From Phaeotremella fagi (lineage: Eukaryota > Basidiomycota > Tremellomycetes > Tremellales > Phaeotremellaceae), in the NCBI GenBank assembly GCA_001599715.1, contig BCHU01000004.1, positions 496,001-560,000 of the forward strand: a stretch of DNA of 64,000 bases. The letters run 5' to 3'. The notes below the pieces were generated by a model. That model did not search any database and was not told where the DNA came from. It was given only the letters and a program-made list of their open reading frames with translations. Shown one piece after another: positions 10,826-57,030 of this stretch. How positions within the stretch are numbered: position 1 is the stretch's first letter; every line of letters starts with the position of its first letter. The position numbers and the translations under genes are program-made.

Positions 10826-11559
10826 CGTTCAATATGTTGTTGTTCAGGAGCGAGGAAGAAATTTTTAAAGTGAAGGGGTGATTTTGAGGTGAGGGAAGAC
10901 GAATCGGACTACATTAGAAGGCTTTTTCTGGAGGTTGTTTCGGTTTCCGACCTCTTTAGAAAGAAGGTGCGTTAAAGGAGGCGTAATGTGGATTTCATTT
11001 GCGAGTCGAATCAGCATTCCAGGCAGAGTGGTGTCGGGAAAGTGGCGAACCACATTCATAAATCTGAAACACCAACGACCCCTGAGGTTTATTGTTTACC
11101 TATTGTTTATTGTTCTCAGCAACTTGCACCACCCCCCTCAAAGCGTTAACAGATCAACGTCAATATACTATTGTATCCTATTGTTCATCAAACATCGACA
11201 TGGATAGCGATACAGTAACACGGACTGTGAACCAAAACATCAGGAGGTAAGGCAACTAGACTACTGAAGATGATGGTGGGAATTCTGTCGTCATGTCTGA
11301 GGAATAATACGCTATAGAGATGATCGAAGAGAATGATATGGTATATAGGATTAGGAAAGCTGTCGATCTACTTCTCCTCTCTCCTCATCTTCACTTCCTT
11401 CAGCTCATTTTACTCGATACAAAGAAAATCCGTTGAATCAACATAACATACAAAGCTGTTTAAATCCCGTTCGATCATTATCTACGGTCCATCAATCCTC
11501 TATATACATCAACATCAACATCAAACTTTCCACATATACATCTTAAACAACATCTCGGA
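10826..11559. promoter_or_regulatory. Divergent promoter of array copy 4 and the LRR gene
   Basis: About 730 bp between start codons. Short open frames here have no support. TACAGTA occurs at 11211-11217. The LRR side ends in a long leader rich in CATCAACATCAAC. Confidence 0.5.
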
Positions 11560-21574: not shown

Positions 21575-21865
21575 ACTGTACGTTTTGGTCGACTATCGTG
21601 AGGTTCATACTGTATATACTGTATATACTTTTCGTAGAAGCCTACTTGGTGGAAAATGTAACTTCTTTGTAGAGGAAAAACGAGACGTCAGAACAAAAGT
21701 TACCCTCTTTCCTTCAAACAAATCGGGAATGGAGGAAGGATGTCATTTTCGCCTTCCATTTCAGTCGGACATATTTTTCAGCCGTCGTCGATATTTCTCC
21801 CAGAAACTTATAATCTTTTCCCCAGTTTATCTTTCTTCCCAACTATCAACAAAAGTGTCATCAAA
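21575..21865. promoter_or_regulatory. Spacer with tandem TACTGTA before family B copy 1
   Basis: ACTGTATAT is repeated back to back here, giving TACTGTA at 21608-21614 and 21617-21623. A CT-rich leader (CTTTCCTTC, TTTATCTTTCTTCCC) runs up to the start codon. Confidence 0.45.
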
Positions 21866-24115: not shown

Positions 24116-24127
24116 TGTGTCGTTGGG
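24002..24127 (+). repeat. Conserved 126-bp 3' block, family B copy 1
   Basis: This block and 27017-27142 have equal length and differ at only about ten positions by eye. They run through the stop codon into the 3' flank (GTGTCGTTGGG), while the rest of the two genes is strongly diverged. This suggests gene conversion or a selected nucleic-acid element. Confidence 0.8.
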
Positions 24128-24679
24128 TAAAGGGGTTTTTGGTAATTGCTATCCAGATTTAGTTATGTTTGTCGTGGATGAAATTTGATTGAGATTGGCT
24201 ATCATTGATTCATGTTTTCCCCACCTTACGACATTTGGAGTCCGCTGCTAAGTTGGTACCGTTGATTATTTGAGGTTGAGACGATGTATGTGTACTGTAC
24301 AAGTAAGTGCTGTATGACCAAAACATGGAAGTGGCAAGCAATTAACAACTCGAGTGCCACACTTGTACGGCACTTGAGACTCTGGGTATTTCTCTTCCTA
24401 TGGATTCTGACGCAAAAGCTACATGCATTCAACTCAAACCAATAACTCGCCATTTAGAAAAAAAGAGACATCAATTGTATCTTCTGCCACTTAGCCCTTT
24501 CAGCAAAGTTCAAGAAGACGAATCTCAAATTGACGCAGTCGAAGATGACATCGGCCTTCCAGTCCTTCCTTTCATTTTACATACTCAGACAATTCACAGA
24601 AGTAATTCGACAACTAGGACTCAGAGATTTTTACCCCTCTTAAATACTCTTAACTCTCCTTCCAAAACAAAAGAGAACA
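24116..24679. promoter_or_regulatory. Spacer between family B copies
   Basis: About 560 bp. An open frame at 24400-24705 overlaps the next start and looks like leader sequence. TACTGTA is at 24293-24299, and the last 80 bp are CT-rich. Confidence 0.45.
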
Positions 24680-38319: not shown

Positions 38320-38342
38320 GCCGCAATTCTCCGTGTGATGAG
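38320..38342 (+). repeat. 23-bp direct repeat, left copy
   Basis: Begins GCCGCAATTC and ends GTGATGAG; identical to 52688-52710 in the same orientation. Allowing one mismatch extends the match 4 bp to the left. The two copies bracket the eight-gene catabolic cluster. Confidence 0.85.
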
Positions 38343-38800: not shown

Positions 38801-39880
38801 ATGGATTCCTGGCCATCTCACTCGGATTACGTCTACGCAACTAAAGAAGGTGTACCCATCTCCCTCCGTCTGTGGCCTGCTGTCTCCACAAGCGGTCCAG
38901 CCCCATTCCTACTCTGGACACACGGCGGTTCATTCTGTTTCGCTCTCTTCCCAGACGTTACCGATTATGTCGTCCCCACTTTCACCAAGCTCGGATACCA
39001 CGTCATCTCTGCTGATTTCCGTTTGGCTCCTTGTGCCAACGTCGAGGATCAGCTTCAAGACGCCACGGACGCATTCAAATGGTGTCAAGCCAACCTTCCC
39101 GATATCTTACCGAAGGACTCGATAGATATCAACACCTATTTTGTTGGTGGGGATTCTGCTGGCGGTTACCTCGGTTCGATGCTTGCATTGAATCTTTCAC
39201 CTGCACCAAAAGCTGTAATCAGCTCATGTGGTATCATGGATCTCAGTGATCCTCATTTCAACACTTTAGCCAAAGAAATTCCGTTGTCAGGGAAATTTTC
39301 AAGAGAATCAGTGGAGGCTAAAGTACTTGAAAGGGATTTGACTCAGGCAGTTACAGAGGTTCCCAACCCTGCCGTTCTCGCAGCGATTGGAGCTGAAGGT
39401 ATCGCCAAAAAATTCAATCGACCCGAATTCACAATGACCGACGCTAAAGTCATGCAACTTGATTGTCGAGCTGTCATGTATGGTCGTTCTGGTTGGGTCA
39501 AAGCTGCTCTTCATTCTGAAAGGTTCTCATCAGATGAAGAATTATCTGCGTATGCTAGATCGGTTTCTCCTCTTTGGTTGATTGATACCGCCAAAACCTT
39601 CCCTCCAACGTTCTTCATCCATGGTGAATCAGACACTGCTGTCCCGTGTAGTCATGCCAAACAAATGCAAGCCAAGTTACTTGCAAAGAACATTGATGTA
39701 GAAGCTTACTATGAACCTGGATCGGATCACATGTTTGACAAGAAATTCGTTGTGAGTACCATTGTCTAAGAGTGAAAGGTGACTTGCTAACTTGTCTTGC
39801 AGGGACCAGAAGTACCAGGATACGAGGCTTGTGTAGTGAAATGTGCAGAATTCATTTCTCGACACGTCCGATCTGACTGA
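38801..39880 (+). CDS. Alpha/beta-hydrolase (HSL-type esterase)
   Basis: Two exons (38801-39751, 39803-39880) give 342 aa. The start at 38801 was chosen over 38741 because the 20 extra residues look like leader. Seen: LWTHGGSFCFALFP (HGG oxyanion hole), VGGDSAGGYLGSML (nucleophile Ser in GDSAGG), FFIHGESDTAVP (acid Asp) and PGSDHMF (catalytic His), the complete triad in standard order. No signal peptide, so probably cytosolic. It is the first gene inside the repeat-bounded cluster and could release an ester or lactone from the pathway substrate, but its link to hydantoin breakdown is only positional. Confidence 0.88.
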
Positions 39881-40231
39881 GTGTGGCATATAGTGTATAC
39901 CATAAAGACTTTTTACATGCATATCATTTTGCCAAAAGCATGTCGTAGTGAAGTCATCTTTACACAAGTTTGGTTTGGCTGAGGTGAAGCTGATATTTGG
40001 AGTTACGGCACAGGACATACAGAGTTTTGCAAATTGGTCGCCTAAGCGATGTTTCACGCATGTAGAAAGGAGCTGAGAGGTGCAGCACTTAATCGTGTAC
40101 GAATTTTTATTTGGAAGATACGAACAAAGACAACAATCAAAACTTCTACAACCCTACTTCATCACTTAGTTGCCACCGCTACCGCACTCTGAAACTGCTT
40201 CAACCTCTCCCACTGAATTTGAATCCCCTCC
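39881..40231. other. Convergent 3' region, esterase and permease
   Basis: Between the stop codons of the esterase and the minus-strand permease. No gene or clear element seen. Confidence 0.5.
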
Positions 40232-42216
40232 CTAGTCTCGCTTGAAGTCGACATCTTCGTGAGCAACCAGGTTTTCAGTTTTGCCTAATTTACGTCGTAA
40301 AGTCTGCACACGTCGTGTTTCCTTCTCGGTGTGATATGTCAAGTACCAACACAGACCGGAGACGAGGATAACACCAATTTCAATACAGCCACAGGCAACG
40401 AATGGAATCGTGTCTGCAGATCAAAGTCAGCCTTCTGAGGAAGGATACAGAATAAACTTAACCTACAAGCTGGAGCGTATTTGGACTGGAAGATTTGAGC
40501 GGACCAGAGACCAGCCATTTGACCTGCACCAGTGAGATATGCCATAACGAACGCAGAAGATGTAGTTCCAGAAAGCGATTGAACTCTCCATGGAATCATT
40601 GTTTGGTAGCCCCAAGAGACGATAGGGTACAAAATGACGATGATAGCGTATTGAGCAGACTTGTTTGTGACGTAGGCCAACAAGAACATTCCAACGACCA
40701 TCATAGACATGGCAAACCAGAAGAAGATAGGTCGTGGTACTCTTGAGAATCGGTCGTTGACGTAAGCACCACCGATACCTCCAACCCAGTACAGGAAGGC
40801 GGGAGGGATGGTCACTAGAAGGTAGATTATATCAGCATAATCCTTAATGACTAAGAGGTAAGACTCACAGAGAACAGATGAGGCAGCATTGGAACCGAGA
40901 TTGAAAGACGAAACAATAGTGGGAAGCCAGAAGGAAAGTCCAATGAAACCGGTATTCTAGGGAGATCAGTAATAACCCGGAAAAGATTACAAGGACTGAG
41001 ACTCACAAAGAGTAAGATCATGAACGCAAACGCCAATGTGGTAATATCCTTGAAGGAATCTTTGAACTCTTGCATGTCGAACGCCTTGTCGGACTCCCTT
41101 GAGGATCCTGGACCAAGACGACCTTGAATGAATTTACGCTCATCTGGAGTGAGGAACTTGGCACTTCCGGGGTCTGAAAGACAAAACAGATCAGTCAGCC
41201 ATCAAATCACCTATCAAGGTCGAAATACTCACATTCTGGCATGTAAAAGTAGATCAAGGCAAGGAGTAAGATGGAAAGAAGACCTTGGATAATGTATACC
41301 CATTGCCATCCACTCAGACCACCTCGACCGTCAATGAAGGTGATACCGTAACAGATAAGAGCAGTGAAGACGTTGCAGAAATTAAACATGGCGGAGATGG
41401 CGGCGAATCTAGGACCGACTTCGTCCAAACGATACCAGTAGGTAAGATGAAGATAAGCGCCTGGAGCCATTCCAGCTTCAAAGAGACCGAGGAAAGCACG
41501 AGCCTAACGAAGTAAGATTGTAGAACTTGGTGTAGAAAATGTAAGACTCACGGTCAATAGACCTGCACCGTTAGACGCGGCTGCGTGGCACATGGATGCG
41601 ATAGTCCAGAGTGCGAGAATTCTTGGAAAGTAAGCTTTCAGTTTCATAGACATACGAACCTCATGTAGTGGACACGTGGACCAGTCTTTTTGAACAAAAG
41701 ATTAGATGGGAGTTCACCGAGAGCGTAGAATAGAGTGAAAACAGTAGAGGTGTACCCAAACTGATCAGTAGTCATACCCAATTGGGTAAGGATGTTCGTC
41801 GGTGAACCAACATTCATGGTTTTCACACTGACAAAAGTCAGCCTGTGAATGGCGATGCGGAACATCACTCACTAAGAGATAGCACCACTGTCCATACCCT
41901 GAACACATGTTGTTTCAGTAAGAATGCTTTTCGGGTCAGCCAGTAACTCGCTCGGAGGATGTAGGTGATGACTAAAGGACCGACGAGTCTCAAGTCAATC
42001 TTACGAATAATCTTTTGACCTTCTTCATAGGTGAAACTGTGAGACAGGAACCAGTCAGAGGGGTGTGGCATCAACCAACCTCAGAACTTACAGGTCGCGC
42101 CATTCTTCGTGAGGAATGGGTGAGGAGTTTTTCTCGCTATCTGGAACTCCCGGGACATCTTGGATGTTGGAGACAACCTGATCTTTGGTGTCTATGGTGT
42201 CAATTTCAGTGGGCAT
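40232..42216 (-). CDS. MFS permease, Dal5/allantoate-permease family
   Basis: Plasma-membrane transporter of organic anions in the ACS group of fungal MFS proteins. It starts at 42216 with a hydrophilic N-terminus (EIDTIDTKDQ...) and ends at 40232. Seen: IIRKIDLRLVGPLVITYILR into helix 1, GALGELPSN-like FYALGELPSNLLFKKTGP (loop 2-3), RAFLGLFEAGMAPGAYLHLT, LSGWQWVYIIQGL, a central cytosolic stretch with LTPDERKFI, FLYWVGGIGGAYVNDRFSRV, SSAFVMAYLTGAGQMAGLWS and a basic tail. About 12 helices fit. Multiple introns. One, after YILR (about 41950), seems to use a GC donor. Divergent from the regulator and inside the hydantoin cluster, so a role in uptake of hydantoin, N-carbamoyl amino acid or allantoate-like compounds is inferred. 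Confidence 0.9.
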
Positions 42217-42741
42217 GTTGTTTGAAGATCTTGAAGAGTGTATGGATGTGGGTCATGCTGACATGAGTATTTATGCAGGAACATCTCTTATCATGGCGAA
42301 CATCGATCGTGACGGCCAAGCTGAGACTAGCCGTCGTTTGCCATTTGCTTTACCCGCGGGAATTAAAGAACGCCTACTAAAAATCTCGTTATCAGGTAAG
42401 CTAAGTTCGGGTTTACAGGATGAGTTACAGAATGATGGAATGGTTCTGAAATAACTTTCAAGGCAGGTGAAAAACAACAGAGTGTGTTGCTATTGGGACG
42501 AGAAGAAAGAAGTAGGAATGAAATTGTTTACACTTGCGTGGATGATGATCATGCTTGCATGTTTAAGTAGTGGTAGAATATATATATATACTAGACTCAC
42601 TATCTAAATGCAAATCACGTGTTTTCTTGGCGTTTGCAAAAGCTAGATCTAAAATCCAACTACAGCCATCTGCCTTATCTCGCACCTTGTATCTATCCAT
42701 TTCACTTTATACTACACACCGTTTGTAGAAGCGATTCGACT
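42217..42741. promoter_or_regulatory. Divergent permease/regulator promoter with GATA and CACGTG sites
   Basis: About 525 bp between start codons. CTTATC (GATAAG on the other strand) occurs at 42287-42292 and 42674-42679, and CACGTG at 42616-42621. GATAAG is the site of fungal nitrogen GATA factors, which fits a nitrogen-source transporter. A TATATATATATA tract lies near 42580. Confidence 0.55.
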
Positions 42742-45344
42742 ATGCAGCATCGGGTTGAGAATCAGCAGTATGACAACCACTTCCAGCCAAGTAACAACAG
42801 ATCGACCTCGTCACATCTGGTTTTTGATCTTGGTCAAGCAGATCCGACACTTTTTACTGGGACTGGCTATATGGATGACTTCAATGCATCTCTCCATCTG
42901 GACCAGCATAGCCACATTAATCGGAGTACGGTAGAAACTTCTGGAACTGGGGGATCTGGTGGCCGCCAACGACGATCTCGAAAAAATCGCCCCTGCGACT
43001 TTTGTCGTCGACGTAAAACACGCTGCAACATTGGAGATACTGGACCACCTTGCTTGTTGTGCTTCGAAAACAATCGACCTTGCACCTTTGAGCTTGCTCC
43101 ACCGGTTCGTAAACCCAGGAGGGCCTCACCCACGCTGGTCTCGAAGCGCCAGGAAGAGGCAGAACGGGAATCGGTGGGTACGGATTCCGTCTCTCCAGAT
43201 AGTTTAGGCAATGCAGCTTCAGCTGGCGCCAGTGCCCATCGATCGAACTCAGTCATGGATAGTCCCAACACGTACCAGCACGACACACGACAGGGGAAAC
43301 GACAAAGAAGAGGTGTTAGTGCAGACTTGGAGCGTATCGAGCCAACGGTGTTCGATTGGGATGTTGCAGCAGATGTGCTGCCAGAATCACACGATAGTTC
43401 GTCAGGATCGGGTCAATCCATAACCCACCCCCCTCGTCGAAGTCAAGGTCAACGTCCTCCAGCCTTCGATCATCTCTCAATAGCTGGCTTCGAACCACAA
43501 GGTAAGCAGTAGACCTCGAAGCCTTCACTGACACTTGAAGTGTTAACAAATCCTGTCACCGACGACCTTCTCCCGATAACGGACGACAGCTCAGAGAAAC
43601 CTCGTAACAAGTCTCATGTTCGCCAGATTGTCAGTAATATCTTGCTTACGCGGAAATCATCCACGCTGATACTGTCTGTAGTCCACTGATCCTAAGCACC
43701 CAGTTTTTGTGATCATGCATCCGAATTCCACGCGTGAGCTTTTCCTTCATGTATGCAATAACTGACTTCCCCGTATAGACCGAAAAGCGTCTACACAGGG
43801 TCAAGCTGCGCTTGAAAACATCCGAGCTCTCATCTCCAATAGACCAGAGAAAGAGTTCTCTGAAATAGCATTGTTCAATCTCTACAGCTCCCATTTCCAC
43901 CCTGCGCTACCTATATTACCCAGTGGAAAAGCGTCAAAATTTCCGCCGTATCTTTTGGCTTCAATTCTGACAAAAGCGTTTTCTCACTCTGGAACTACCC
44001 GGTCCATGGGCGGCCTTGCTGCCCATCTCGTGCAATCGGCTGCTCAAGAAGCTACCACCCAAGCCAGCTTGGTGTCAGTAATCTTTGGAATGTTAATGCT
44101 GGACCTTCAGCCTTCCAGTAGCGCTCAGAAGTCGTTTCTTTTACTGGTAAATGTAAGCAGCCTTCAGCTCCACTCAACATACTGGAACTAATCGACTTGC
44201 AAGACTATCGGGATGGCTCAACTTCTAGGACTCCATCTAAACCCCACAAAGTGGTCCGTACCGTCTTGGGAACAAGATCTTCGTGTTCGCCTTTGGTGGC
44301 AGGTCAGGATACATGACGCGTGGATGAGCTTCTGTGAGTGAGCTGGAATACGTTTGGCCAGACCTTGACAATGATCGCAGTGAACTCTCGACCGTCCCAT
44401 ATTCAACCAGGAAACAGTTCAGCACCGTTACCTACTCTTGCTTCTGTCCTAGAAGCGTCGTGCTCATTCACCACAGCATCCTCCGACTCTGCCAAAGCGT
44501 TCATCGCATCGTGTCGCCTTTCACTACTCGTTGCCCGCCTTCAGTCAAAGGTCTGTACGTTGTCTGCTTTGTCAGAACACACCCAGGAGGATCGAATGGA
44601 GGAGGTGGACGACTTGATTTTCAAAGCAGACGAATTGGCCAATTCGTGGCGTGAACACTTGCAACCTTTGAAACAACCTAGGTCTACCGGTGTCAGTGAG
44701 TGCAGTAGTTGGCATTATTTGACACACAGATTCTTTCCTACTTTGTCTACTAGGATTCCGTTGCATGCTGCCTAGGATAAGGATTGAGATCGAACACGGC
44801 TTAGGATCATCATTCAATTTACCAGAAACTGGTCTGAAGCCGTTCAAAGAGATGGTCACCTTTGTCACCACATTGACTCCTGCCGAACTCGATGGTTATT
44901 TTTTAGCCTGTACGTATTCTTGAAATGGTAGATCTGACACCTTTTTCAGACTGCTCTCACATCCTGTCCTCAGTGTTGTCATCTCTCATCCGCTTCTCCC
45001 TTGCCGCCCCGAACCCCATCACTGCGACCGATTTGATAGCACGCTTTGTTCGCTCACTGCATACATATCAGTCGACAAATCTCTGGGAAGTCGCAACTCC
45101 AGCTCTTTGGCGAGCGGCAGCCGTGTGTCAGCGATTTCGGGCGTCTGGGGAGAACGGCCAGTTATGTGAAGCTCTTCGAGGGCATTCATCATCAACTCCC
45201 GACGGCACCTCACCACTGCAAACGCTCGCCCCCATCAATTTCGGGGAAGGAACTGACGCGGCGCTCGAGTCACAGCTAGCTTGGATATGGCCTGGGGGTG
45301 AGCCTACGTTTGACCAGTTTCTTGACTTTACAACGATCACATAA
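42742..45344 (+). CDS. Zn2Cys6 transcription factor, cluster regulator candidate
   Basis: Eight exons (42742-43501, 43541-43629, 43682-43733, 43779-44146, 44204-44333, 44381-44695, 44754-44909, 44950-45344) give 754 aa with consistent phases. The zinc cluster CDFCRRRKTRCNIGD then GPPCLLCFENNRPCTF lies near residues 90-120 and follows a basic run (RQRRSRKNR). The fungal-specific transcription-factor domain follows, with STDPKHPVFVIMHPNST, LFNLYSSHFHPALPILP, GLHLNPTKWSVPSWEQDLRV, RLWWQV and LNSRPSHI. The retained-intron frames end early, so splicing is required. Divergent from the permease; typical of pathway-specific regulators of fungal catabolic clusters. An upstream ATG at 42619 is less likely. 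Confidence 0.9.
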
Positions 45345-45362
45345 TCTACATGCATACGTAAT

Positions 45363-46557
45363 CTATGAATAGGCGTGGTTGTGGCGCTCACTGACGTACT
45401 GAAGCGCGGTCACAGGCTCGTACAACTTGGGTTTGTCGGTGTCGTTGTAAGTGTCAGGCAAACATTCAATAACACTGTCTGGATCGGCCTTGAAAAAGTA
45501 AGGGATAGAATATCGGGCTGGCGTTATGTCACCTTTGAAATTGGGTGGACACCTGACTCGATGACAGGTCGATCGGAGGTGGTTGTTGGACCATCTCTGG
45601 AGAAGATCACCTGGGAGTAAGCTTGCGATCTTATAGAGTAAACTAACCAATGTTGAACACCGCGTGGCCTGGCATGGGCTGTGCCTGCAAGAATGTACCA
45701 GGGTTGTTTGGGTCCTCGACCTCCAACCCGCCAGTTTGGTCCTGATACAGGAAAGTTCCACTTCCGAAATCAGTGTGCTCTCCGATACGCCCGACTTCAC
45801 CATCACGAAGAGCCTGGGTGGATTGAGGAGGGTAGTGGAGCAATCTGACTTGGTTGTCACCCCACTCATGGTATTTTTCGAGGAAGCCTTCTGGAACGTT
45901 CGGCATACCGAGGGCAAGGGCTTTCAGAATGTTGAGAGAGGCTAATCGTCCTGCTTCGAAATAACGGTCGAGCACTTCTTTGAAACCTGGAAGGTCTTCC
46001 TCAGGAAGAGCAATGTTGGGAAGGTAAGGATGGTTATCGTGTCCCCACTCGAAAGATCTAAACTGTCAATGAACGTCGAGGCATTGGACCTACTCTTTCT
46101 TGTCTGGCCACTTTTTGGTTGCCTTGTAGAGAGCTACCTCCTCTGCCGTAGCATCGTGAGGCTGTTGCGAGGGTCAATTCTGAGCCATCTACGATGAGAT
46201 AAAACTCACAAGTTGGACCAAGCTGTTAACACCGAGTGCCGAGTATCCACGGTGATGCCATCCAGCAACTGGGTGTGGGGCTTTCATTTTCACCTCCTTG
46301 GGCAGATCAAAGAATTTTTTGGACCACACAAACATCTCGTCTACGAGTTCGAGCTCCATTCCAAAGTTCTTGATATACGCAAAGCCGACATCGCGACAAG
46401 CTTCGTAGAACTCCTTCGCGACTTCTTGAGCTCGGGGTCCAGTGCCATGATCAAAGCCAGAGAAGTCGATGATAGGGAGAACACTGGCGGCTACCGATCC
46501 ATGTTGATATTTGGCGTGAGCAGGGACAGGACTTTCTGTGGGAACTGATACAGGCAT
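45363..46557 (-). CDS. 2-oxoglutarate/Fe(II)-type oxygenase (IPNS-like fold)
   Basis: Non-haem iron oxygenase of the isopenicillin-N-synthase-like family. Four exons (46557-46210, 46161-46094, 46057-45648, 45610-45363) give 357 aa. Seen: LPIIDFSGF near residue 27 (DIOX_N), KKFFDLPKEVKMK, HHRGYSALGV, NQVRLLHYPP, GEHTDFGSGTFLYQD (His and Asp ligands), LEVEDP, STCHRV (distal His ligand) and ARYSIPYFF (Arg-x-Ser for 2-oxoglutarate). All iron and cosubstrate residues are present. It is divergent from the racemase over 242 bp. It may hydroxylate a ring or side chain before or after hydantoin opening; substrate not deducible. Confidence 0.92.
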
Positions 46558-46799
46558 TTTCGTTTACGTTGAGAGATTGGGGTTGAAAGCAATGGAGATA
46601 AGCCTGATATACTGTTTCCAAAACGCCCTGGACCATTGCCGTGTGGGATGTGATTTAACCGCTGGCCAACCATCGCCCTGGTGACTTACCCGTTACTAGC
46701 CGTTACACTCGGAATCTATGAGATTCTTATTCGACAGCTTGGCGTGAAAGTTCACTTGTCCAACCACTTGTCCAGGCTTTCATACATCGCAAGCTCAAA
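46558..46799. promoter_or_regulatory. Divergent oxygenase/racemase promoter
   Basis: 242 bp shared by two cluster genes. It contains GATAAG at 46597-46602, a candidate nitrogen-GATA-factor site. Confidence 0.5.
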
Positions 46800-47534
46800 A
46801 TGTCTGTCATCAAGCTCCTTATCGTCAATCCAAATTCCTCCAGCTCCATCACTGCAGCCGTTGGAAAGTCTCTCACTCCAGTATGTCCTCCAGGTGTGGA
46901 TCTCACTTTTTGGAACCCCTCTTTTGGCCCACCAGGTATCAAAGACGAACAAACTGGTATCGAATCCGCGGAAGCTTGTATGGTAGAACTAGTTGGTACC
47001 GCAGAACGACCTGCCATTCATCCCCTAGATCCTTACGATGGCGTGTTGGTTTGCTGCTTCAGCGAGCATCCTCTTGTCGACCTTCTTTCCAAACATTTCT
47101 TGTCGATAGGCTCCAGCGCCGTAGCACTATGTATCTTCCAAGCTGGTCTAGCAGCAGCTTTACTCCTTACTTCAAAAGCTATCGGAATCATTGCAACAGG
47201 TACTGGTCGACGCGAGAATCACTACGTTGGCGTTTCTAGATTCTTGGGTACAGACGCCGATAACTGCCCTCGATTTGCAGCATCTATCACAACAGGTCTT
47301 CAGGTGGTTGAGCTACAAGACGGTGATCAAACAAAGGTGGAGAACGGGATCAGAACCACATCGGTCAAATTGGTGAAGGCGGGCGCAGATGTAATCGTGT
47401 TAGGGTGTGCGGGGATGTGCGGCATGGATCCGTGGATTATCGAAGCTGCTCGTTCAGAGGGAGTCTTCGTCAAGGTCGTGGACAGTCCGAAAGCTGGTAT
47501 GCAGATGCTTATCGCTTTGTTGAGATCTCGTTGA
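46800..47534 (+). CDS. Asp/Glu/hydantoin racemase
   Basis: 244 aa in one exon. The family racemises 5-substituted hydantoins or related acids through two cysteines. Seen: LLIVNPNSSSSITAAV (N-terminal NPN), then VLVCCFSEHPLVDLL with the first active-site Cys (a double Cys here), GIIATGTGRRENHY, and VIVLGCAGMCGMDPW with the second Cys in the classic LGCAGM motif. The fold and length match HyuE-type racemases and yeast Dcg1, which sits beside allantoin genes in Saccharomyces. Position next to a D-carbamoylase and in the same cluster as a hydantoinase supports hydantoin as substrate. Confidence 0.92.
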   Translation: MSVIKLLIVNPNSSSSITAAVGKSLTPVCPPGVDLTFWNPSFGPPGIKDEQTGIESAEACMVELVGTAERPAIHPLDPYDGVLVCCFSEHPLVDLLSKHFLSIGSSAVALCIFQAGLAAALLLTSKAIGIIATGTGRRENHYVGVSRFLGTDADNCPRFAASITTGLQVVELQDGDQTKVENGIRTTSVKLVKAGADVIVLGCAGMCGMDPWIIEAARSEGVFVKVVDSPKAGMQMLIALLRSR

Positions 47535-47654
47535 AACTTATGCATTCATGTCAGTAAAATTCTACGCACGCTATTTCTATGCACGTATACAAGCACTATC
47601 CGCAGTGGACAGAAAGGTAGAATGGACCGCCCCCCGACGGCCAAGGAAAAGAAA

Positions 47655-47660
47655 GATAAA
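47655..47660 (+). promoter_or_regulatory. GATAAA site upstream of carbamoylase
   Basis: GATAAA 58 bp before the start codon; matches the loose GATA-factor consensus. Weak evidence on its own. Confidence 0.3.
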
Positions 47661-47717
47661 GCTTGAACCGCGTTTTTGAGATCTTGTTTTCCTACTTTGC
47701 ACATTACACCACCTAAC

Positions 47718-48823
47718 ATGCCTCGTTTTCTTAAAGTTGCTGCAGCTCAAGTTGGCGCCGTTCATCGATCCACGCCACGACAAGAGGTGATGGAAAGATT
47801 GATCGCACTGCTTGAAAAAGCAGCTGCTCAGCAGATCCAGCTGGTCGTCTTTCGTGAGTGATGAGCCCAAGCTGAGTTAACAATGCAGCCGAGACAACCT
47901 TCACAACTTTCTTCCCCCGATACTACATTCCTGACGAAGAGGAATTGGCTTCATACTACGAGCTCGAAGACGAAGCTACAGGTCAGACCATCGTCGATTC
48001 ACCCAATGTCAAAGCTTTCTTTACTCGCGCTTGTGAGCTAGGGATCGATGTTCAAATCGGTTATGGTGAAGACACAGGTGTCAAGGGCAAACGATACAAC
48101 ACAGCGGTTTATGTATCCAATGGGAAGGTTATCAATAAATACCGCAAGGTACATCTTCCTGGGACCATGGAGCCTTTTGATTTGGAGCCAACTACCACCA
48201 ATCAACTCGAGAAGCGATATTTCCTCCCTGGAAATCTTGGCTTCAACGCTTTCCGGGCTCCAGGTATCAGAGACGAGTCGACAAAAGCTTCACCCATTGT
48301 TGGTCAACTCATTTGTAACGATCGACGCTGGGCTGAAGGATGGCGTTGTTACGGTCTGCAAGGTGTAGAGATTCTATGTTGCGGTTATGTGAGTATTCTC
48401 TGCTAAAGATTTGGGCTGATTGTATATTTTCAGAACACTACCGCTTACGCACCTAAACTCTGGGGTGGGGATCAAAATATCAGTCGAGAGAAGGCATACG
48501 CCGAAGCCATGTTCCATCACAAGATTGTCATTCAAGCCCATGCCTACACCAACTCTATGTTCTGTATCACCTCAGCTAGAGCTGGTGTTGACGATGGGAT
48601 CCACCCTTTGATTCCAGGATCAATGATCGTCGATCCAGAGGGTCACATTGTCGCAGAATCGAAAACCGAAGACGACGAGTTGGTTGTGGCCACGATTGAT
48701 TTGGACGATTGTAACCAGGGTAAACAGAGGACTTTCAACTTGGCCAAGCACCGCAGACCAGAGATGTATGGACGACTGGTGGATACTCAAGGTGTAGTTC
48801 CTCCTCCAGAGGTTGATCTGTAG
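47718..48823 (+). CDS. N-carbamoyl-D-amino-acid amidohydrolase (D-carbamoylase)
   Basis: Nitrilase-superfamily enzyme that cleaves N-carbamoyl-D-amino acids to D-amino acid, NH3 and CO2. Three exons (47718-47853, 47889-48388, 48434-48823) give 341 aa, a little longer than bacterial enzymes. The catalytic triad is visible: Glu in LVVFPETTFTTFFPRY, Lys in NKYRKVHLPG and Cys in LICNDRRWAEGWR. The wording TTFFPR and CNDRRW is that of D-carbamoylases rather than beta-ureidopropionase or nitrilase. Splicing the first intron restores VVFPETTF. Same strand as the racemase, 183 bp downstream. Together with the hydantoinase it completes ring opening and decarbamoylation. Confidence 0.94.
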
Positions 48824-49037
48824 TTTGGGAATAGATATGGAATATAGATTTTGGGTTTCCACTAGACTAACAACGTGAATGCATTGGGATGCTTGCCGAA
48901 TAGGGTGTGGTCTAGTCTAGCAAGGCTGGCCCAAACAATGCAGCACAAGTCGTGTAAGATACGTGTAGCGGAATCTTGGACAGTGATTAAGCTCACCAAC
49001 AACACTTGGTATTGGCATCGTAGATCTCTCCTGCAGC

Positions 49038-49189
49038 ATGTTCAATATCGTAAGGTATGCATCCGTATGTACAAACTATAAGTAATGCTTCAGGCTCTCT
49101 CCTCCTCAAATGTTCAATATCATAAGGTATGCATCCGTATATACAAACTAAAGTAATGCTTCAGGCTCTCTCCTCCTCAAATGTTCAAT
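49038..49189. repeat. 72-bp tandem repeat at the aldolase 3' end
   Basis: A unit starting ATGTTCAATATC is repeated at 49038 and 49110 (period 72), and a partial third start is at 49181 (period 71). Copies differ by a few substitutions and one indel. The second unit contains the C-terminal codons and stop of the aldolase-like gene, so the first unit is a decayed copy of its last exon in the 3' flank. Confidence 0.85.
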
Positions 49190-50294
49190 CTCTGGGACAA
49201 GATTGAAATAAACGTTGTCGGGACTACAGAGAAAACGTCAGCACAAATTAACACTACGAAATCGACAAATCGACTCACTGTTGAATCGTAGCCGCAGTGA
49301 AAGCAGCATCCTCGTCTGCAATAACACTCTTCTTCAAACCGTTGGCAGCAGCGGCTTCAATCATGAGCTGGACTTTACATTGTTTATCCAGAGCTGAGAA
49401 CAAGTAAACAGCTTCGTCGACGGTGTGACCCAAAGTCAAGAGACCATGGTTTTGAAGGATTGCGCATTTGTTGTGAGGTCCAAGAGCTTCCGCGATGTTT
49501 TCACCTTCCTCAGCTGCTAGAACGATACCACCAAAGTTCTCATAAACGGTTTGATTCTTGTAGAAAAGACAGGAATCCTGTGTGGTGATCTCGACTGGTT
49601 TACCAAACGCCGACCAGGCTTTTCCATTCAGAGAGTGACAGTGGGCTGCAGCTTCGACTTCTGGTCGAGCGTGGTGGATAGCGGAATGAATGTAGAATCC
49701 AGCTTGCTATTATAAGTGTCAGAGAGGTCGTTTGAGGAACAATGAGAAGACTGACGTTGACTGGTAGTTGCGCTCCTTCAGGGTGAACGAACCCATCAGG
49801 CGTTACGAGGACCAAACTGGAATCGCATCAGGCTCCGCAAACTTAATGTCCACAACCACGAGACAAGCACTCACTCGCTAACGGTCATGTCTTTGAAATG
49901 CAGGCCAAAGGGGTTCATCCAGAAATGGTCTCGTAGGATTGGGTCTCTAACGGTGATATGTCCACTGATACCCTCTCCATAACCGAGACCTCCCCAGAAT
50001 CTGAAACCAAGAGCCAAGTGTTCCTGAATCCCAAGTTAGTCATTGCAGCTGCGTAAACATACACGGAGCACTCACCTTGACCCATTGTCTCTTCTTCAAC
50101 AAACCAGCTTCATCGTCGTCGAATGTAGGAATACTGGAGAGCTTAATCTTGCCCTCCCTGTCCCCTCGATAGATACGGTCAATGGGACTGTCAGCAAGAG
50201 CGGAGACGCTCTGCTTGAAGCCGTGAGGAGTGGGCTTAGAGGGTTGATGAGCGACAGCGACTACAGGTATATCGTTGGTGGCGATGGGAGACAT
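49148..50294 (-). CDS. Class II aldolase/adducin-family protein
   Basis: Zinc-dependent aldolase-like fold (fuculose-phosphate aldolase/adducin head). Five exons (50294-50076, 50023-49875, 49816-49756, 49706-49279, 49223-49148) give 310 aa. Seen: LALGFRFWGGLGYGEGISGHI (N-terminal family motif with GISGHI), WMNPFGLHFKDMTVSDLVLV, AIHHARPEVEAAAHCHSLNG (HxH metal ligands), LQNHGLLTLGHTVDEA (third His) and a tail HPDNVYFNLVPEIEHL. All metal residues are present. In the cluster it may cleave an aldol formed by the oxygenase, or act on a hydroxylated intermediate; this is inference. The last exon is duplicated in the 3' flank. Confidence 0.9.
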
Positions 50295-50682
50295 GATTGT
50301 GGGAAAAGAAGAGGTTTGCTCTCTGAGCGCAACTTTAAGTAATCTGGGGAGTCTGCAATGTGCCGTCGGCAGAGGCAGAGGCAGATCTCGGAGACTTCAC
50401 TCCGGATAGAGCGGGCAATTGTCAGGCACCGCCAAAACGTCGGTGTTTTAATTGGACGGATCAATGCCAAGAGAATGTTCTGCGGAGCTTGACTTGAGTT
50501 ACTGAGTTGCACAATTGCCAGAGATCATTGGTAGAGAATTGTTGAAGCAGCTCTATAGTAAGATAATGCATAAAATGACTTCTAACTTAGAAGCTGGTAT
50601 CGAAATCTAGATACGTGTCATGTCTGAATCACATGAACCCTTTAAACTCTATAAGTTGGCGCTTGCCCACAACACATTCTGT
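50295..50682. promoter_or_regulatory. Aldolase promoter and hydantoinase 3' flank
   Basis: About 390 bp with no gene. AGGCAGAGGCAGAG near 50375 is a short direct repeat. Nothing else noted. Confidence 0.45.
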
Positions 50683-51365
50683 CTAATTGTGGGGGTTGAA
50701 GCCGTTCAACCAGGCTGACGAGTAGCCTCTAGGACCAGGAAGCACGTTGAAACCTCTTTTCAGGAAGTTGCCTGTTCCTACTGGAGCAACTACCTTGTTT
50801 GACTCTCCATCATATGCGACCTTCCCTCGTAAAAGCACAAGCTTTGGCCAATCTTCAATCTCCATACCTTCATAAGGCGTGTAGTCTGCCCCATGGTGCA
50901 GATCTTCCTGTTTCACGATCAACTTTTTTCTTGACTTGTCGCTTCTCCAGATGATCAGATCAGCGTCAGATCCAGGTTGGATAGTACCTTTTTGTGGGTA
51001 CATGCCGTAGAGTTTGGCGGCATTAGTAGAGTTGAGTTCGACGAATTTCTGTGGAGTGATACGTCCCTTGAGTACCCCTTCTGACCACAGGAGAGGGGTT
51101 CTAGTGCAGACGCCGGGCAGTCCGTTAGGTATCCCGCGAAAATCTCCCCGAGGGTTCTTAGTAGGGTTGTTGGTGAGACCTCGCTGTTTCCCCAAATCAT
51201 CATGGAAGTTCGTGGGTGCGTGATCGGAGGAAAAGACGGTAAAAGTTCCGTTTGCCAAGCCTTCCCAGATGCTCGCGTTGTCACTCTTATCTGCTCGAAT
51301 AGGAGGTGCGCACACGCATTTAGCTCTGACTTGAGTCAGCTCAAAGTGCACCCAGAAAACCAAAA

Positions 51366-51405
<40 letters not shown>

Positions 51406-52390
51406 ACCCTTCAAACCCAGGAGCTTGCATTTTCTCAGCAGTCAGGAGGGCGTAGTGTGGACATGTTTCAGCGTACAGTGGTAAACCTCTGGTTTGTGCT
51501 TTTCGAATGACAGCAGTGGCCTCCTTGGAGCTGACGTGGACGATCAAAATTGGAGCATCTACGACCTCTGCCAACGCTATAGCTCTGTTTGTCGCTTCGT
51601 CCTCAACGATTGGTGGTCTTGCCGTTCCGTGATGCCAAGGTTCCACCATACCTCTCTCGACTAGATTGGCTGTCATCCAGTTGATTATGTCTGCGTTTTC
51701 GGCGTGAATCATGGTGGTTACACCGGTGCGACGTGCAGCGCACAGGATATCTAGAATCTGTTTGTCGTTCAAAATCATGGCTGGGTACGTCATGTAGATC
51801 TGAGTATGATTAGAACAAACATCATCAGTTTCCTACCTTGACACTAGTGATTCCAAATTCAACCATCTTGGGAACCTCCACTTTGACCACTTCTTCTGTT
51901 GGATCGGTTATGATAGCGTGGAACGAATAGTCGCAGTGAGTCTTTCCATCAGCAAGCTCGTAGTACGCTTCGATAGCTTTCATTGCCGATGTTCCTTTCG
52001 CCTGAACAGCAAAGGCAACGACAGTAGTTGTTCCTCCACTAATAGCACCGCGGGTTCCAGTCGTCCAATCGTCAGCGCTACGAGCTCCAGAGGCTGATTG
52101 ACCAATGTGGACGTGGGAGTCAACTCCTCCAGGCTAGTAAGTGTCAGCGGATTGAATCAGCACTGCGATGGTTACTCACGGTAACGTACGCTCCTTCAGC
52201 ATCGATAACTTGGCAGTTTGGTCCATAAGGGAGATTCTTGGCCAAACACACCACAACGCCGTCCTTGATACCAATATCGCATTCTGTCTCGTCCTGCAAG
52301 CCAGGTTAATTGGTAAAACCGTGTAGAACTTACGGAAGCTGTTACAACAATTCCATTCTTTACCACAACGTCGAAATCGAAACTGGACAT
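50683..52390 (-). CDS. D-hydantoinase / dihydropyrimidinase
   Basis: Zinc amidohydrolase that opens the ring of 5-substituted hydantoins or dihydropyrimidines to N-carbamoyl amino acids. Five exons (52390-52334, 52293-52180, 52133-51837, 51799-51408, 51325-50683) give 500 aa, the family length. Metal residues are all visible: His-x-His in GGVDSHVHIGQ, carbamylated Lys in TSVKIYMTYP, His in MIHAENADII, His in IVHVSS, and Asp in VFSSDHAPTN. YAETCPHY and GMYPQKGTIQPGSDADLIIW are typical of D-hydantoinases. Intron 4 contains a 35-nt T tract on the coding strand. Pairing with a D-carbamoylase and a hydantoin racemase favours a hydantoinase role over pyrimidine catabolism. Confidence 0.94.
51368..51402 (-). 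repeat. 35-nt poly-T tract inside hydantoinase intron 4
   Basis: 35 uninterrupted A on the plus strand, i.e. T on the coding strand, begins 5 nt after the donor site. Read through as coding it would give a long Phe run, which is an artefact. Confidence 0.9.
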
Positions 52391-52824
52391 CTTTGCAAAT
52401 CACAAGACGCTGAAAAGAGTGTTTATCAAAGTAGAAGAAAGAGATCATAGACTTGACAATATGGGGCCAAGAGAATGAACAAGATCTTGAGATGCCGACG
52501 GCCAATTGTTTTCTCAGGGTGCAAATATTCAACCTCCGAGAGATAGTGACGAGATCTGTCATTGGGCAAAAGATACAATTAGATAGACGAGATCTAGATC
52601 TGGATATTCTTCGGAAAAATAGAGAAGATTTAATTTAAGAGTTCCTCGAGTGTGGCAGCTCTAAGAAAAGACCATCAAGTTTATAACGCCGCAATTCTCC
52701 GTGTGATGAGTGAAGGCGGTTGGACGGCTTAAACTTGGACCGGAAAGTGGAGGTTGTCACTTGTGGTTCGTGCTTACCTTGATATCCATCCAACGAGCTA
52801 CCATCCATCCTACCACCAACCATC
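52391..52824. promoter_or_regulatory. Right boundary of the cluster
   Basis: Divergent promoter of the hydantoinase and the next alpha/beta-hydrolase. It contains the right copy of the 23-bp repeat (52688-52710). Confidence 0.5.
52688..52710 (+). repeat. 23-bp direct repeat, right copy
   Basis: Identical to 38320-38342 and in the same orientation, 14.4 kb away, just outside the hydantoinase. Confidence 0.85.
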
Positions 52825-54338: not shown

Positions 54339-54919
54339 TTTTGGTGTCCGTGATTTGTGAACGACATGGACTGTACGAGTATTGTGATTCTCACTCTTTC
54401 TCATCCTCCTTTCAGGACATATGTCACATCTGTTATTCTGTCTCTTCTTATGTGAACTCCCCAAACACGTATGAGCTTCTGCTTGTCATGTTGAATATTT
54501 CAGACCCCATCATATCAGCCCCTTTGATACTCGTGAAACGACTTGAACATAACCTTGGTCCCAACAGATTATATTTCGTCATCACTATAAAATAACGATC
54601 TAGTCATCAGTTTCTCTGTTCATCAAACTTGCCTTCCCTTCAGCTCTTTTCGTAGTTCATACACGTTTGGACGCTCCACAATTTTCTTTCATGAGACCAA
54701 GGAAGAGATTATTGACCACCTTTGTTTCCATCAGTTTTCTTTATCTTTTGTCTTACTGGCCTTCTTCATCATACAGTAAATCGACTCAACTTATGTACAG
54801 TATTATAAAGAACTTCCCAAATCCCCTCTTTTTTCCCATAATCAAACTTTTCAGTTCTATTTTAATCGAAAACTTTCAACCAAGTAAATCTCAAAGTACA
54901 ATACAGAATAGACCCCACG
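54339..54919. promoter_or_regulatory. Upstream part of duplication copy 1
   Basis: From about 54541 this is the first arm of the 1.24-kb duplication. TACAGTA is at 54796-54802. An open frame (from 54667) happens to run through it into the coding part. Confidence 0.5.
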
Positions 54920-55771
54920 ATGTCCGCAAATTCTACATCCGAGATCAAAATCACATCTTTGGACAATATCTTCAGATGTACCGCTTCGCAATGGTTGGTA
55001 GAATCGCCTTCCGAAACCGTACCTGGGACTCAGTTCGTCTCATGTTTCAAAACAAGAATCGCCCCATAGTCGAAGATGAAGATGCCGACAAATGGACGGC
55101 GCGCAAAGTGGTTTGCCAAGCGCTTGAAAGCTCTTTCAAATCAACTAATTTCAACCCCTCTGGTACATCCGAACAACTGATCCCCAAGTTCGCTAAACTG
55201 GTCCAACATATCAACGAACACTACAAAGAAGAGTGTACCAAATTAGGTCTGGCCGCAGAAGGTGGTGAAATCTACGCTATAGATCTAGATCAGTCTCGTA
55301 GATTAGTGGTGCTCGATAGTAGGATCTCTCTCCAGTCATCTCCAGAAGATCCAAAGCCATGGAAATACACTGATCAATTTAAAATATCACCATGTGCTGA
55401 TGAGCAGTCGACTGATGGGTCAGAATATACTTGGATGATTGGGGTCCAAGCTGATCCAGACACACCTCAATTTGGGTTAGACGCCTTCGTCAATATCTTT
55501 GGAGATCTTCGTAGCAATAAGGATGGTTCACCTTGGCGAAAGGAGTGAGGTTTCAGAATTGGAGGAGGAAGTTGAAAGATTGTATGTATGTATGGTTCGT
55601 TGGAGGCTTTTGAACGATCGAGATTTCAAGTAGTATTTAAGTATTTGATGTGATAACGTTTGAGGAGTGCTTGTTCTAGCCAAAAAAATCATTGCATCTG
55701 ACGAACTATTCAATTCAATCTACAAAGCATTCGAAGCAGGTTTAATCGAGTTCGAACATACAGGCTATAAA
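54541..55771 (+). repeat. 1.24-kb tandem duplication, copy 1
   Basis: Matches 55777-57030 in the same order: leader (ATTTCGTCATCACT, TACACGTTTG, CGCTCCACAA), coding region, and 3' flank (TGATGTGATAACGT, TTGCATCTGAC). Divergence is moderate with several indels. Confidence 0.85.
54920..55548 (+). pseudogene. Family C copy 1, frameshifted relative to copy 2
   Basis: Not recognised. The ATG at 54920 corresponds to the start of copy 2 (both begin MSANSTS), and the first 49 codons share FRCTASQWL with it. That frame stops at 55067-55069. At about 55060-55066 copy 1 has one base fewer than copy 2, and homology then resumes in another frame (IVEDEDADKW, then HINEHYKEECTKLGL, EGGEIYAI, SRISLQSSPEDPKPW, MIGVQADPDTP) to the stop at 55546-55548. 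So this is either a one-base-deletion pseudogene or a gene that now uses the in-frame ATG at 54667, giving 293 aa whose N-terminus includes a hydrophobic run (LTTFVSISFLYLLSYW). A sequencing error is the third option. Confidence 0.7.
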
Positions 55772-56123
55772 TGATGCCACTCCAATACAACCTTGGTTCA
55801 AACAGGTTCTATTTCGTCATCACTGAAAACAGACAATGTTTCTCCACTCATCAAACTCGCCTTCCCTTTACAGTACCTCCCTTCGCAGTCTATACACGTT
55901 TGAACGCTCCACAAAGAAGGCATTTTTTACCACCTTTGTTTCCAACTTTTTCATTTATCTTTTGTCTGACTAGCCTTCTGTTCAGAAAATCGACTCGACA
56001 CACAAGTTAAAAGACTTCCCACATCCCCTCTTTCCCATAATCATACTCTTCAGTATTATTTTTAATCGAAACTCTCAACCAAGTCATCTCAAAGTACAAC
56101 AAAACACAGAACACAGGCCCTCA
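55549..56123. promoter_or_regulatory. Spacer and leader of duplication copy 2
   Basis: The 3' flank of copy 1 joins the leader of copy 2 near 55772. TACAGTA is at 55869-55875. Stops interrupt the frame that is open in copy 1. Confidence 0.5.
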
Positions 56124-57030
56124 ATGTCCGCCAATTCTACATCCGATATCAACACCACAGTGGTCTCTGCCACTGACGACAAGTCAGTCGCAAACACCAA
56201 CACCAGCTCCGTCAACGTCGCCACCGACATCGTCGGTACTCTCGATTCGGTTTTTCTCGATTCGGTTATGAAAGACAATGTCTTCAGGTGTACCGCTTCA
56301 CAATGGCTCAGGAATATGCCTGGCACGTTCAATGGCGTCTTACGTTTTGAAACAAAAATCCAGCCCATATTCGAAGATAATGATGCCGATAAGTACATGT
56401 TGCGCCAACTGATTTGCGATGGGCTTTTAGACTCTTACAATTCATCAACCCATATCGACTTCTCTTATATCGACGAGAAGCAGCGACTCCAACACTTCAC
56501 CTCACTGGTTCGACATATCAACGATCACTACAAAGAAGAGTGTTCAAAACTAGGGCTCTCCGCAGAAGGCGGAGAAATTTACGCCGTCGATCCAGATTAT
56601 GATATGCAATTGCGAAATCTAGATAGTAAGATCAGTCTCCAGTCCTCTCCAGACGACCCAAGGCCCTGGGAAAACACTCGTCGCTTCAAAATATCACCGT
56701 GTGTTCCCGGGTTTCTTAGGCATGTTAGGTTTGATTCCATGATTGGGGTCCAAGCTAATCCAGATACACCTACAAAGGGGTTAGACGCCTTCATCAATTA
56801 TTGGGGACAAGTCAGGAGCAGAGGGTATAGCGAGGTTTTGGGTGTCAGAAGTCAAGGGGGCAGTACGGAAAATTTGTGGGAGGCTTTTATAAAACGACCG
56901 AGATTTAAGATTTAAGTATCTGATGTGATAACGTCTGAGGAATACTTATTCTGTCAACATCAAAAATTCTTTGCATCTGACAAACTATTCAAATCCAATC
57001 CACAAAGCATCAGAAGTGGTTTCAACCCAA
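55777..57030 (+). repeat. 1.24-kb tandem duplication, copy 2
   Basis: Second arm of the duplication, directly following the first. See 54541-55771. Confidence 0.85.
56124..56915 (+). CDS. Family C copy 2, unrecognised intronless protein
   Basis: 263 aa in one exon. The N-terminal 50 residues are Ser/Thr/Asn-rich. The body has VFRCTASQWLRNMPGTFNGV, IFEDNDADKYMLRQLICDGL, HINDHYKEECSKLGLSAEGG and KISLQSSPDDPRPWENT, then FDSMIGVQANPDTPTKGLDA. Most blocks are shared with copy 1, which keeps the C-terminal two-thirds in frame, so selection on this part is plausible. No signal peptide or membrane helix; no known domain. Copy 2 is the intact reference for the family in this window. Confidence 0.75.
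   Translation: MSANSTSDINTTVVSATDDKSVANTNTSSVNVATDIVGTLDSVFLDSVMKDNVFRCTASQWLRNMPGTFNGVLRFETKIQPIFEDNDADKYMLRQLICDGLLDSYNSSTHIDFSYIDEKQRLQHFTSLVRHINDHYKEECSKLGLSAEGGEIYAVDPDYDMQLRNLDSKISLQSSPDDPRPWENTRRFKISPCVPGFLRHVRFDSMIGVQANPDTPTKGLDAFINYWGQVRSRGYSEVLGVRSQGGSTENLWEAFIKRPRFKI

What the first reader, a model, noticed from the sequence alone, without database searches (positions are those of the whole stretch)
38801..52390. Fungal hydantoin-utilisation gene cluster
Seen: one 13.6-kb block contains racemase (46800), D-carbamoylase (47718) and D-hydantoinase (50683) genes with intact catalytic residues, plus a Dal5-type permease, a Zn2Cys6 regulator, a 2OG/Fe(II) oxygenase, a class II aldolase-like protein and an esterase. 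Known: the racemase-hydantoinase-carbamoylase trio is the core of bacterial hyu operons. Inference: this is an intron-bearing eukaryotic equivalent that makes D-amino acids and ammonia from hydantoins, with extra steps from the oxygenase and aldolase. I know of no described fungal cluster of this makeup, but could not search.
Basis: partly seen in the sequence, partly recalled or inferred. Interest (0 to 1): 0.92.

Follow-up and report, generated by a model that had tools for sequence, protein, structure and literature searches.

The report
Conserved fungal hydantoin-type gene cluster
A fungus carries, side by side, the genes for a hydantoin-splitting pathway known mainly from bacteria, and the core of the set recurs in many related fungi together with an extra enzyme that the bacterial versions examined here almost never have, so fungi probably have an unrecognised way of breaking down ring-shaped nitrogen compounds.

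Summary
Eight genes at 38801-52390 include an allantoin/hydantoin-type racemase, an N-carbamoyl-D-amino-acid hydrolase and a hydantoinase/dihydropyrimidinase with known catalytic residues. New here: (1) the genome holds a second, old cluster on another contig with a like regulator, carbamoylase, hydantoinase and aldolase-fold gene (72-82% identical enzymes). (3) 11 of the 120 best listed carbamoylases are fused to a racemase domain. (4) The aldolase-fold partner is nearly absent beside bacterial carbamoylases (2 of 80 loci). (5) No dihydropyrimidine dehydrogenase was found, so ordinary reductive pyrimidine breakdown is unlikely. The conserved core is hydantoinase + D-carbamoylase + aldolase-fold enzyme + Zn2Cys6; racemase, T7H-like oxygenase, permease and esterase are accessories of this copy. 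Substrate is unproven; the oxygenase is not a strict thymine hydroxylase, and the aldolase-fold protein resembles the oxidative decarboxylase TqaM. Seven open-access literature searches on the point listed no described fungal cluster. Best reading: a D-hydantoinase pathway with an extra decarboxylative step (confidence 0.6).

The parts
38801..39880 (+). Alpha/beta hydrolase (esterase-like), 342 aa, one intron 39752-39802; accessory, cluster membership uncertain
   Evidence: model; Abhydrolase_3 69 bits; no tblastn match in the cluster B region
40232..42216 (-). MFS permease, 509 aa, nine introns, one with a GC donor (41899-41951); accessory
   Evidence: model first drawn, corrected; MFS_1 109 bits
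42742..45344 (+). Zn2Cys6 transcription factor, 756 aa, seven introns; core (homologue in cluster B, 31-48% per segment)
   Evidence: Zn_clus and Fungal_trans
45363..46557 (-). 2-oxoglutarate/Fe(II) oxygenase, 357 aa, relative of thymine-7-hydroxylase; accessory
   Evidence: 5c3p 213 bits, next other protein 128; residues
46800..47534 (+). Allantoin/hydantoin-type racemase, 244 aa, no intron, Cys86 and Cys203; accessory of this copy
47718..48823 (+). N-carbamoyl-D-amino-acid hydrolase, 341 aa, two introns; core
49148..50294 (-). Class II aldolase-fold metalloenzyme, 310 aa, four introns, TqaM-like; core
   Evidence: 43.7% to TqaM
50683..52390 (-). Hydantoinase/dihydropyrimidinase, 500 aa, four introns; core
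38321..38342 (+). Left copy of a 22-bp repeat flanking the cluster; possible regulator site, unproven
52689..52710 (+). Right copy of the same repeat

Best explanation
This is a nitrogen-scavenging (catabolic) gene cluster that works like a bacterial hydantoin-utilisation operon. A permease brings in a cyclic ureide; the racemase interconverts the enantiomers at C5; the hydantoinase opens the ring to an N-carbamoyl-D-amino acid; the D-carbamoylase releases CO2, ammonia and the D-amino acid; and the aldolase-fold metalloenzyme, which resembles TqaM more than a sugar aldolase, decarboxylates the product or its 2-oxo/2-hydroxy derivative. The T7H-like oxygenase oxidises an alkyl substituent on a ring imide so that unusual substrates can enter. 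A dedicated Zn2Cys6 protein controls the set. Inferred: substrate, D-stereochemistry, order of steps, role of the aldolase-fold enzyme, of the oxygenase and of the permease, and regulation.
For: Catalytic sets kept. The carbamoylase carries the residues named for the Pseudomonas D-carbamoylase (Cys172, Glu47, Lys127, Asn173, Arg176; PMC11503299 passages) and scores 217-232 bits to that family against 22-38 bits to chains labelled beta-ureidopropionase. Second cluster on C6 with carbamoylase, Zn2Cys6, hydantoinase and aldolase-fold gene within about 7 kb, not a recent copy (trees). Co-location 11 of 15, 15 of 19 and 10 of 17 species, against about 0.6, 0.8 and 0.6 expected (from the listings). 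Racemase-carbamoylase fusions in 11 of the 120 best listed carbamoylases (one checked by Pfam). In bacteria the hydantoinases nearest to this one among the 80 carbamoylase loci (47-48%; L127, L142, L143) lie near the D-carbamoylase and a racemase. Racemase fold nearest to allantoin and hydantoin racemases. No DPD found (the one Fer4_20 protein read as glutamate synthase by inspection) and only one DHO_dh gene. Three bulky pocket residues of D-hydantoinase (L65, F159, W287) are A71, I165 and C292 here; F159A or W287A in the bacterial enzyme opened it to 5-benzyl and 5-indolylmethyl hydantoins (PMC7175128 passages).
Against: The hydantoinase is closer to yeast dihydropyrimidinase than to any D-hydantoinase in PDB (428 against 383 bits), and its best NCBIfam score is to a model named dihydropyrimidinase (613 bits, just under that model's cut-off of 647). 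Cys in place of Trp287 is also seen in the yeast enzyme (alignment), and F159A in the bacterial enzyme kept or raised activity on dihydrouracil, so the pocket does not single out a hydantoinase. The bacterial D-hydantoinase itself hydrolyses dihydrouracil as fast as hydantoin (table). Cluster B lacks racemase, oxygenase, MFS permease and esterase. The window racemase is not the close relative of the fused racemase. No expression or enzyme data exist. Co-location rests on equal contig lengths and locus-tag numbers, not on read sequence; 4 of 15, 4 of 19 and 7 of 17 species did not show it.
Confidence: 0.6

Rival explanations
1. Reductive pyrimidine catabolism: the hydantoinase is a dihydropyrimidinase, the carbamoylase acts as beta-ureidopropionase, and the oxygenase is a thymine-7-hydroxylase feeding thymine into the same route.
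For: Best PDB match of the hydantoinase is yeast dihydropyrimidinase and its best NCBIfam score is to a dihydropyrimidinase model (613 bits, cut-off 647); oxygenase is nearest to Neurospora T7H with metal and 2OG residues, Arg190, Glu122 and Phe292 kept.
Against: The only Fer4_20 protein found reads as glutamate synthase (by inspection) and only one DHO_dh gene was found, so neither DPD nor a class-I-type dihydrouracil oxidase is apparent. No M20-type beta-alanine synthase (36 bits, cut-off 204). Carbamoylase is about 200 bits closer to D-carbamoylase than to chains labelled beta-ureidopropionase. Oxygenase has His, Phe and Lys at T7H Asn87, Tyr217 and Asn294, although the T7H paper calls the substrate residues strictly or highly conserved in T7Hs (PMC4787775 passages). 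A third, separate hydantoinase/dihydropyrimidinase gene exists (C6:660995-662711) and could do that job. Not excluded: a nitrilase-type beta-ureidopropionase among the other PF00795 genes was only eyeballed by a recalled motif.
Confidence: 0.15
2. Allantoin/ureide utilisation: the racemase is an allantoin racemase, the hydantoinase an allantoinase, and the carbamoylase works on an allantoin-derived ureido acid.
Against: Hydantoinase scores 245 bits to the allantoinase model (cut-off 358) but 493 to the D-hydantoinase/dihydropyrimidinase model (cut-off 393). A gene that looks like an allantoinase sits elsewhere (C12:938108, 29% to this one; name by inspection). Cluster B has no racemase.
Confidence: 0.1
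3. A biosynthetic or detoxifying cluster: the enzymes make or clear an unusual D- or non-protein amino acid, with the 2OG oxygenase and TqaM-like enzyme as tailoring steps.
For: TqaM works with a 2OG oxygenase in a fungal non-protein amino acid pathway (PMC11880133 passages); aldolase-fold protein 43.7% identical to TqaM.
Against: No NRPS, PKS or ligase is among the eight genes; cluster B lacks the oxygenase; recurrence in many basidiomycete yeasts looks catabolic (listings; inference).
Confidence: 0.1

Closest known systems
Bacterial hyu operons (D-hydantoinase, D-carbamoylase, hydantoin racemase)
   Same: Same three enzyme families close together; in the 80 bacterial D-carbamoylase loci kept, a hydantoinase-like hit occurs in 34 (15 strong) and a racemase in 40 with the fused-domain query, 25 with the window racemase
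   Different: Eukaryotic, separate genes on both strands, introns in all but the racemase, a Zn2Cys6 regulator; class II aldolase-fold partner recurrent in fungi, 2 of 80 in bacteria (27-29% identity); racemase not part of the second cluster
Fungal reductive pyrimidine enzymes (yeast dihydropyrimidinase 2fty, beta-alanine synthase)
   Same: Hydantoinase is homologous to yeast dihydropyrimidinase (428 bits)
   Different: No DPD and no M20-type beta-alanine synthase found; carbamoylase belongs to the D-carbamoylase line
TqaM (Penicillium) and NovR, class II aldolase-fold enzymes
   Same: 43.7% identity to TqaM over 252 residues; NovR 153 bits
   Different: Sits in a hydantoinase/carbamoylase cluster; reaction untested.
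Thymine-7-hydroxylase of Neurospora (5c3p)
   Same: 41% identity (128 of 311 aligned), all metal and 2OG ligands checked, Arg190, Glu122 and Phe292 kept
   Different: Asn87, Tyr217 and Asn294 replaced by His, Phe and Lys
OpaE, fungal Asp/Glu racemase family enzyme

Membership tests
hyu-type hydantoin-utilisation system | Hydantoinase, N-carbamoylase and racemase genes close together | tested here: met
   all within 46800-52390 in cluster A; cluster B lacks the racemase
hyu-type hydantoin-utilisation system | Catalytic residues of the three enzymes intact | tested here: met
hyu-type hydantoin-utilisation system | Activity on 5-substituted hydantoins and N-carbamoyl amino acids | not testable with these tools
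   needs enzyme assays
hyu-type hydantoin-utilisation system | Conserved co-localisation across species | tested here: met
D-carbamoylase (N-carbamoyl-D-amino-acid hydrolase) | Cys-Glu-Lys triad plus the Asn and Arg that hold the substrate | tested here: met
Reductive pyrimidine degradation | Dihydropyrimidine dehydrogenase in the genome | tested here: not met
   (six-frame search of a 24-contig assembly of unknown completeness)
Reductive pyrimidine degradation | Beta-ureidopropionase/beta-alanine synthase | tested here: inconclusive
   M20 type: only 36 bits against cut-off 204; nitrilase type only eyeballed
Thymine-7-hydroxylase | Thymine-contacting residues Asn87, Glu122, Arg190, Tyr217, Phe292, Asn294 | tested here: not met
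   three of six kept (Glu122, Arg190, Phe292) (roles from PMC4787775 passages); Y217F alone had insignificant effect on thymine in that paper
Allantoinase | Score over the curated allantoinase cut-off | tested here: not met
   245 against 357.85 bits
Allantoin/hydantoin racemase subfamily | Fold and Cys pair | tested here: met
TqaM-type oxidative decarboxylase | Decarboxylative oxidation activity | not testable with these tools
   sequence similarity only

The most novel reading that the evidence does not exclude
Basidiomycete fungi have a previously unrecognised catabolic route for cyclic ureides that is not the bacterial hydantoin pathway with decorations but a distinct one: ring opening and decarbamoylation are followed by an obligatory oxidative decarboxylation by a TqaM-like, aldolase-fold metalloenzyme. 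One concrete form: 5-hydroxylated dihydropyrimidines or side-chain-oxidised hydantoins give a 2-hydroxy-3-amino or 2-amino acid, and the TqaM-like step removes the carboxylate (for example isoserine to glycine), so that oxidised bases or plant ureides become nitrogen sources.
Probability: 0.2. Interest if true: 0.8.

Novelty: new variant of a known kind. Interest (0 to 1): 0.64.

Why it matters
Hydantoinase-carbamoylase systems are industrial catalysts for D-amino acids and are thought of as bacterial (general knowledge). A recurrent basidiomycete version with a regulator and an extra aldolase-fold enzyme, plus racemase-carbamoylase fusions in other fungi, suggests that fungi handle natural cyclic ureides whose identity is unknown. 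It would give function to many fungal proteins now listed as dihydropyrimidinase, carbon-nitrogen hydrolase or arad-like aldolase, offer eukaryotic biocatalysts, and it makes a direct genetic test possible in Rhodotorula toruloides.

Tried and rejected
Pyrimidine degradation, allantoin use and a biosynthetic role were considered and ranked as rivals. The idea that the window racemase is the unfused form of the fused racemase was tested and rejected: 27-34% identity to 11 fused domains, while a 165-residue piece of the unlinked C12 gene is 37-50% (whole-alignment figures for the window racemase are 31-37%). The idea that clusters A and B are a recent segmental copy was rejected: in all three trees A and B lie in the same fully supported Tremellomycete group but about as far from each other as from other genera (B is the nearest row by path in two of three trees, by a small margin; many inner forks are unresolved). 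The idea that the 22-bp repeat flanking the cluster marks a mobile element was dropped: its 16-bp core occurs 80 times exactly in the genome (120 with up to one mismatch), and 0 times when read backwards; one copy lies upstream of what reads as a carbamoyl-phosphate synthase small-subunit gene (name by inspection). It is left as a lead.

Rows first dropped from the co-location count: one search gave 11 of 12, 15 of 18 and 10 of 15. On checking I found that species present in two listings had been left out (Rhodotorula toruloides, Sporobolomyces pararoseus and Exophiala xenobiotica, whose rows differ in contig length or strain; Aspergillus puulaauensis; Bondarzewia mesenterica); counted as not sharing, the figures are 11 of 15, 15 of 19 and 10 of 17, and these are used throughout. 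One of the 11 is an ascomycete (Saccharata proteae). Rhodotorula kratochvilovae pairs two strains with the same listed contig length, and R. nylandii counts by locus tag.

Literature: ten searches of open-access PMC papers, seven of them on fungal hydantoin genes, seen as listings; passages of PMC4787775, PMC11880133, PMC12661438, PMC5640708, PMC12735256, PMC9585004, PMC12732919, PMC3948071, PMC7175128 and PMC11503299. None described a fungal hydantoin cluster. 'Hydantoinase' in the fungal passages seen meant the hydantoinase/oxoprolinase family or a bare annotation list. Subscription papers and preprints were not searchable. No search of fungal genomes for gene order was possible. Five unspliced pieces of flanking window genes matched no Pfam family.


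Full report
What is there. The window lies in a 22.6-Mb, 24-contig genome (C4:496001-560000). Close protein matches are Kwoniella, Naematelia, Saitozyma and other Tremellomycetes (listings; Kwoniella lineage), so the host is probably a tremellomycete. Eight genes were spliced by hand; all but the racemase have introns, GT-AG of 35-82 bases except one GC-AG in the permease. Every model reads through to its stop. In order: alpha/beta hydrolase (+), MFS permease (-), Zn2Cys6 factor (+), 2OG/Fe(II) oxygenase (-), racemase (+), carbamoylase (+), class II aldolase-fold protein (-), hydantoinase (-). Pfam, NCBIfam and PDB comparisons support these names at the family level.

Second cluster. Searching the genome with five of the proteins and a 38-kb stretch of C6 with all eight showed a second set on C6:1128078-1135135: carbamoylase (-), Zn2Cys6 (+), hydantoinase (+), aldolase-fold gene (+), followed by an amino-acid permease. 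A against B identity is 77.5%, 82% and 71.5% for carbamoylase, hydantoinase and aldolase-fold protein and 31-48% per segment for the regulator. Order and strand differ from A. Trees place both copies in the same Tremellomycete group, not as copies of recent origin. Racemase, oxygenase, MFS permease and esterase have no counterpart there. A third hydantoinase-like gene lies at C6:660995-662711 beside a regulator-like frame.

Other fungi. The protein listings (best 120 each) carry contig lengths and locus tags. For species seen in two listings, carbamoylase and hydantoinase share a contig length or near tags in 11 of 15, carbamoylase and aldolase-fold gene in 15 of 19, hydantoinase and aldolase-fold gene in 10 of 17; chance expectation from contig size, assuming 20-Mb genomes, is about 0.6, 0.8 and 0.6. 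Tag gaps are small: Sporobolomyces koalae 5604 (aldolase), 5606 (carbamoylase), 5608 (hydantoinase); S. salmoneus 2269, 2271, 2274; Rhodosporidiobolus poonsookiae 2948 (aldolase), 2955 (carbamoylase), 2950 (hydantoinase). One Tremellales isolate has all three on a contig of 76,217 bases. The species looked up belong to Tremellomycetes, Microbotryomycetes and Agaricomycetes (three taxa; others recalled). Species without co-location for one pair or another: Pseudohyphozyma, Saitozyma, Phenoliferia, Dendrothele, Stygiomarasmius, Fistulina, Flagelloscypha, Bondarzewia, Aspergillus puulaauensis, and three whose strains or contig lengths differ; some may be other paralogues. Of the 120 listed carbamoylases 11 are about 590-residue fusions with a C-terminal racemase domain (P0049 checked); the 8 named ones are from genera I recall as ascomycetes.

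Bacteria as control. Of the 80 best bacterial carbamoylase loci kept (mostly alphaproteobacteria by title, up to 10 kb each side), 34 have a hydantoinase-like hit, 15 of them strong (347-419 bits), 40 a racemase hit with a fused-domain query (25 with the window racemase), and 2 an aldolase-fold hit at 27-29%. So the aldolase-fold partner looks like a fungal addition.

What it does. Reductive pyrimidine breakdown is unlikely: the only Fer4_20 protein found reads as glutamate synthase, there is a single DHO_dh gene and no M20-type beta-alanine synthase. The oxygenase keeps all T7H metal and 2OG residues checked and Phe292, Arg190 and Glu122, but not Asn87, Tyr217 or Asn294 (roles from PMC4787775 passages), so it may oxidise a related ring imide rather than thymine. 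[quoted passage not shown] I therefore favour a hydantoinase-type catabolic route ending in a decarboxylation, at 0.6; the mended co-location counts leave this unchanged because they still exceed expectation more than tenfold.

Limits. No expression data; neighbourhoods in other fungi were inferred, not read; the assembly may be incomplete; racemase, oxygenase, permease and esterase were not traced in relatives.

Noticed in passing
window 38321-38336 and 52689-52704; C6:662946; C17:170092: A 16-bp motif (CCGCAATTCTCCGTGT) occurs 80 times exactly in the genome, often in close pairs, and not at all when read backwards; two copies bracket the cluster, one lies beside the third hydantoinase gene and one upstream of what reads as a carbamoyl-phosphate synthase small-subunit gene. 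It contains a CGG-N7-CGG direct repeat on the other strand and may be a regulator's binding site.
   Followed up: partly
window 51368-51402: A run of 35 A (T on the gene strand) sits inside the last intron of the hydantoinase gene, next to the donor site.
   Followed up: no
window 49038-49192: A 71-72-bp tandem duplication covers the 3' end of the aldolase-fold gene and its downstream sequence.
   Followed up: no
window 41899-41951: The permease model needs a GC-AG intron.
   Followed up: partly
C5:15138-21699: Several further aldolase-fold hits lie close together at one end of contig C5; the nearest non-cluster paralogue is at C2:2275332 (58-59%).
   Followed up: no
window 5961-10828, 20384-27130 and 54604-56915: Groups of long open frames that look alike by eye suggest local gene-family expansions; not analysed.
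   Followed up: no
Rhodosporidiobolus ruineniae contig of 81,822 bases (listing): Three aldolase-fold genes (tags 3083, 3091, 3092) around the carbamoylase (3085) suggest local amplification of the aldolase-fold partner.
   Followed up: no
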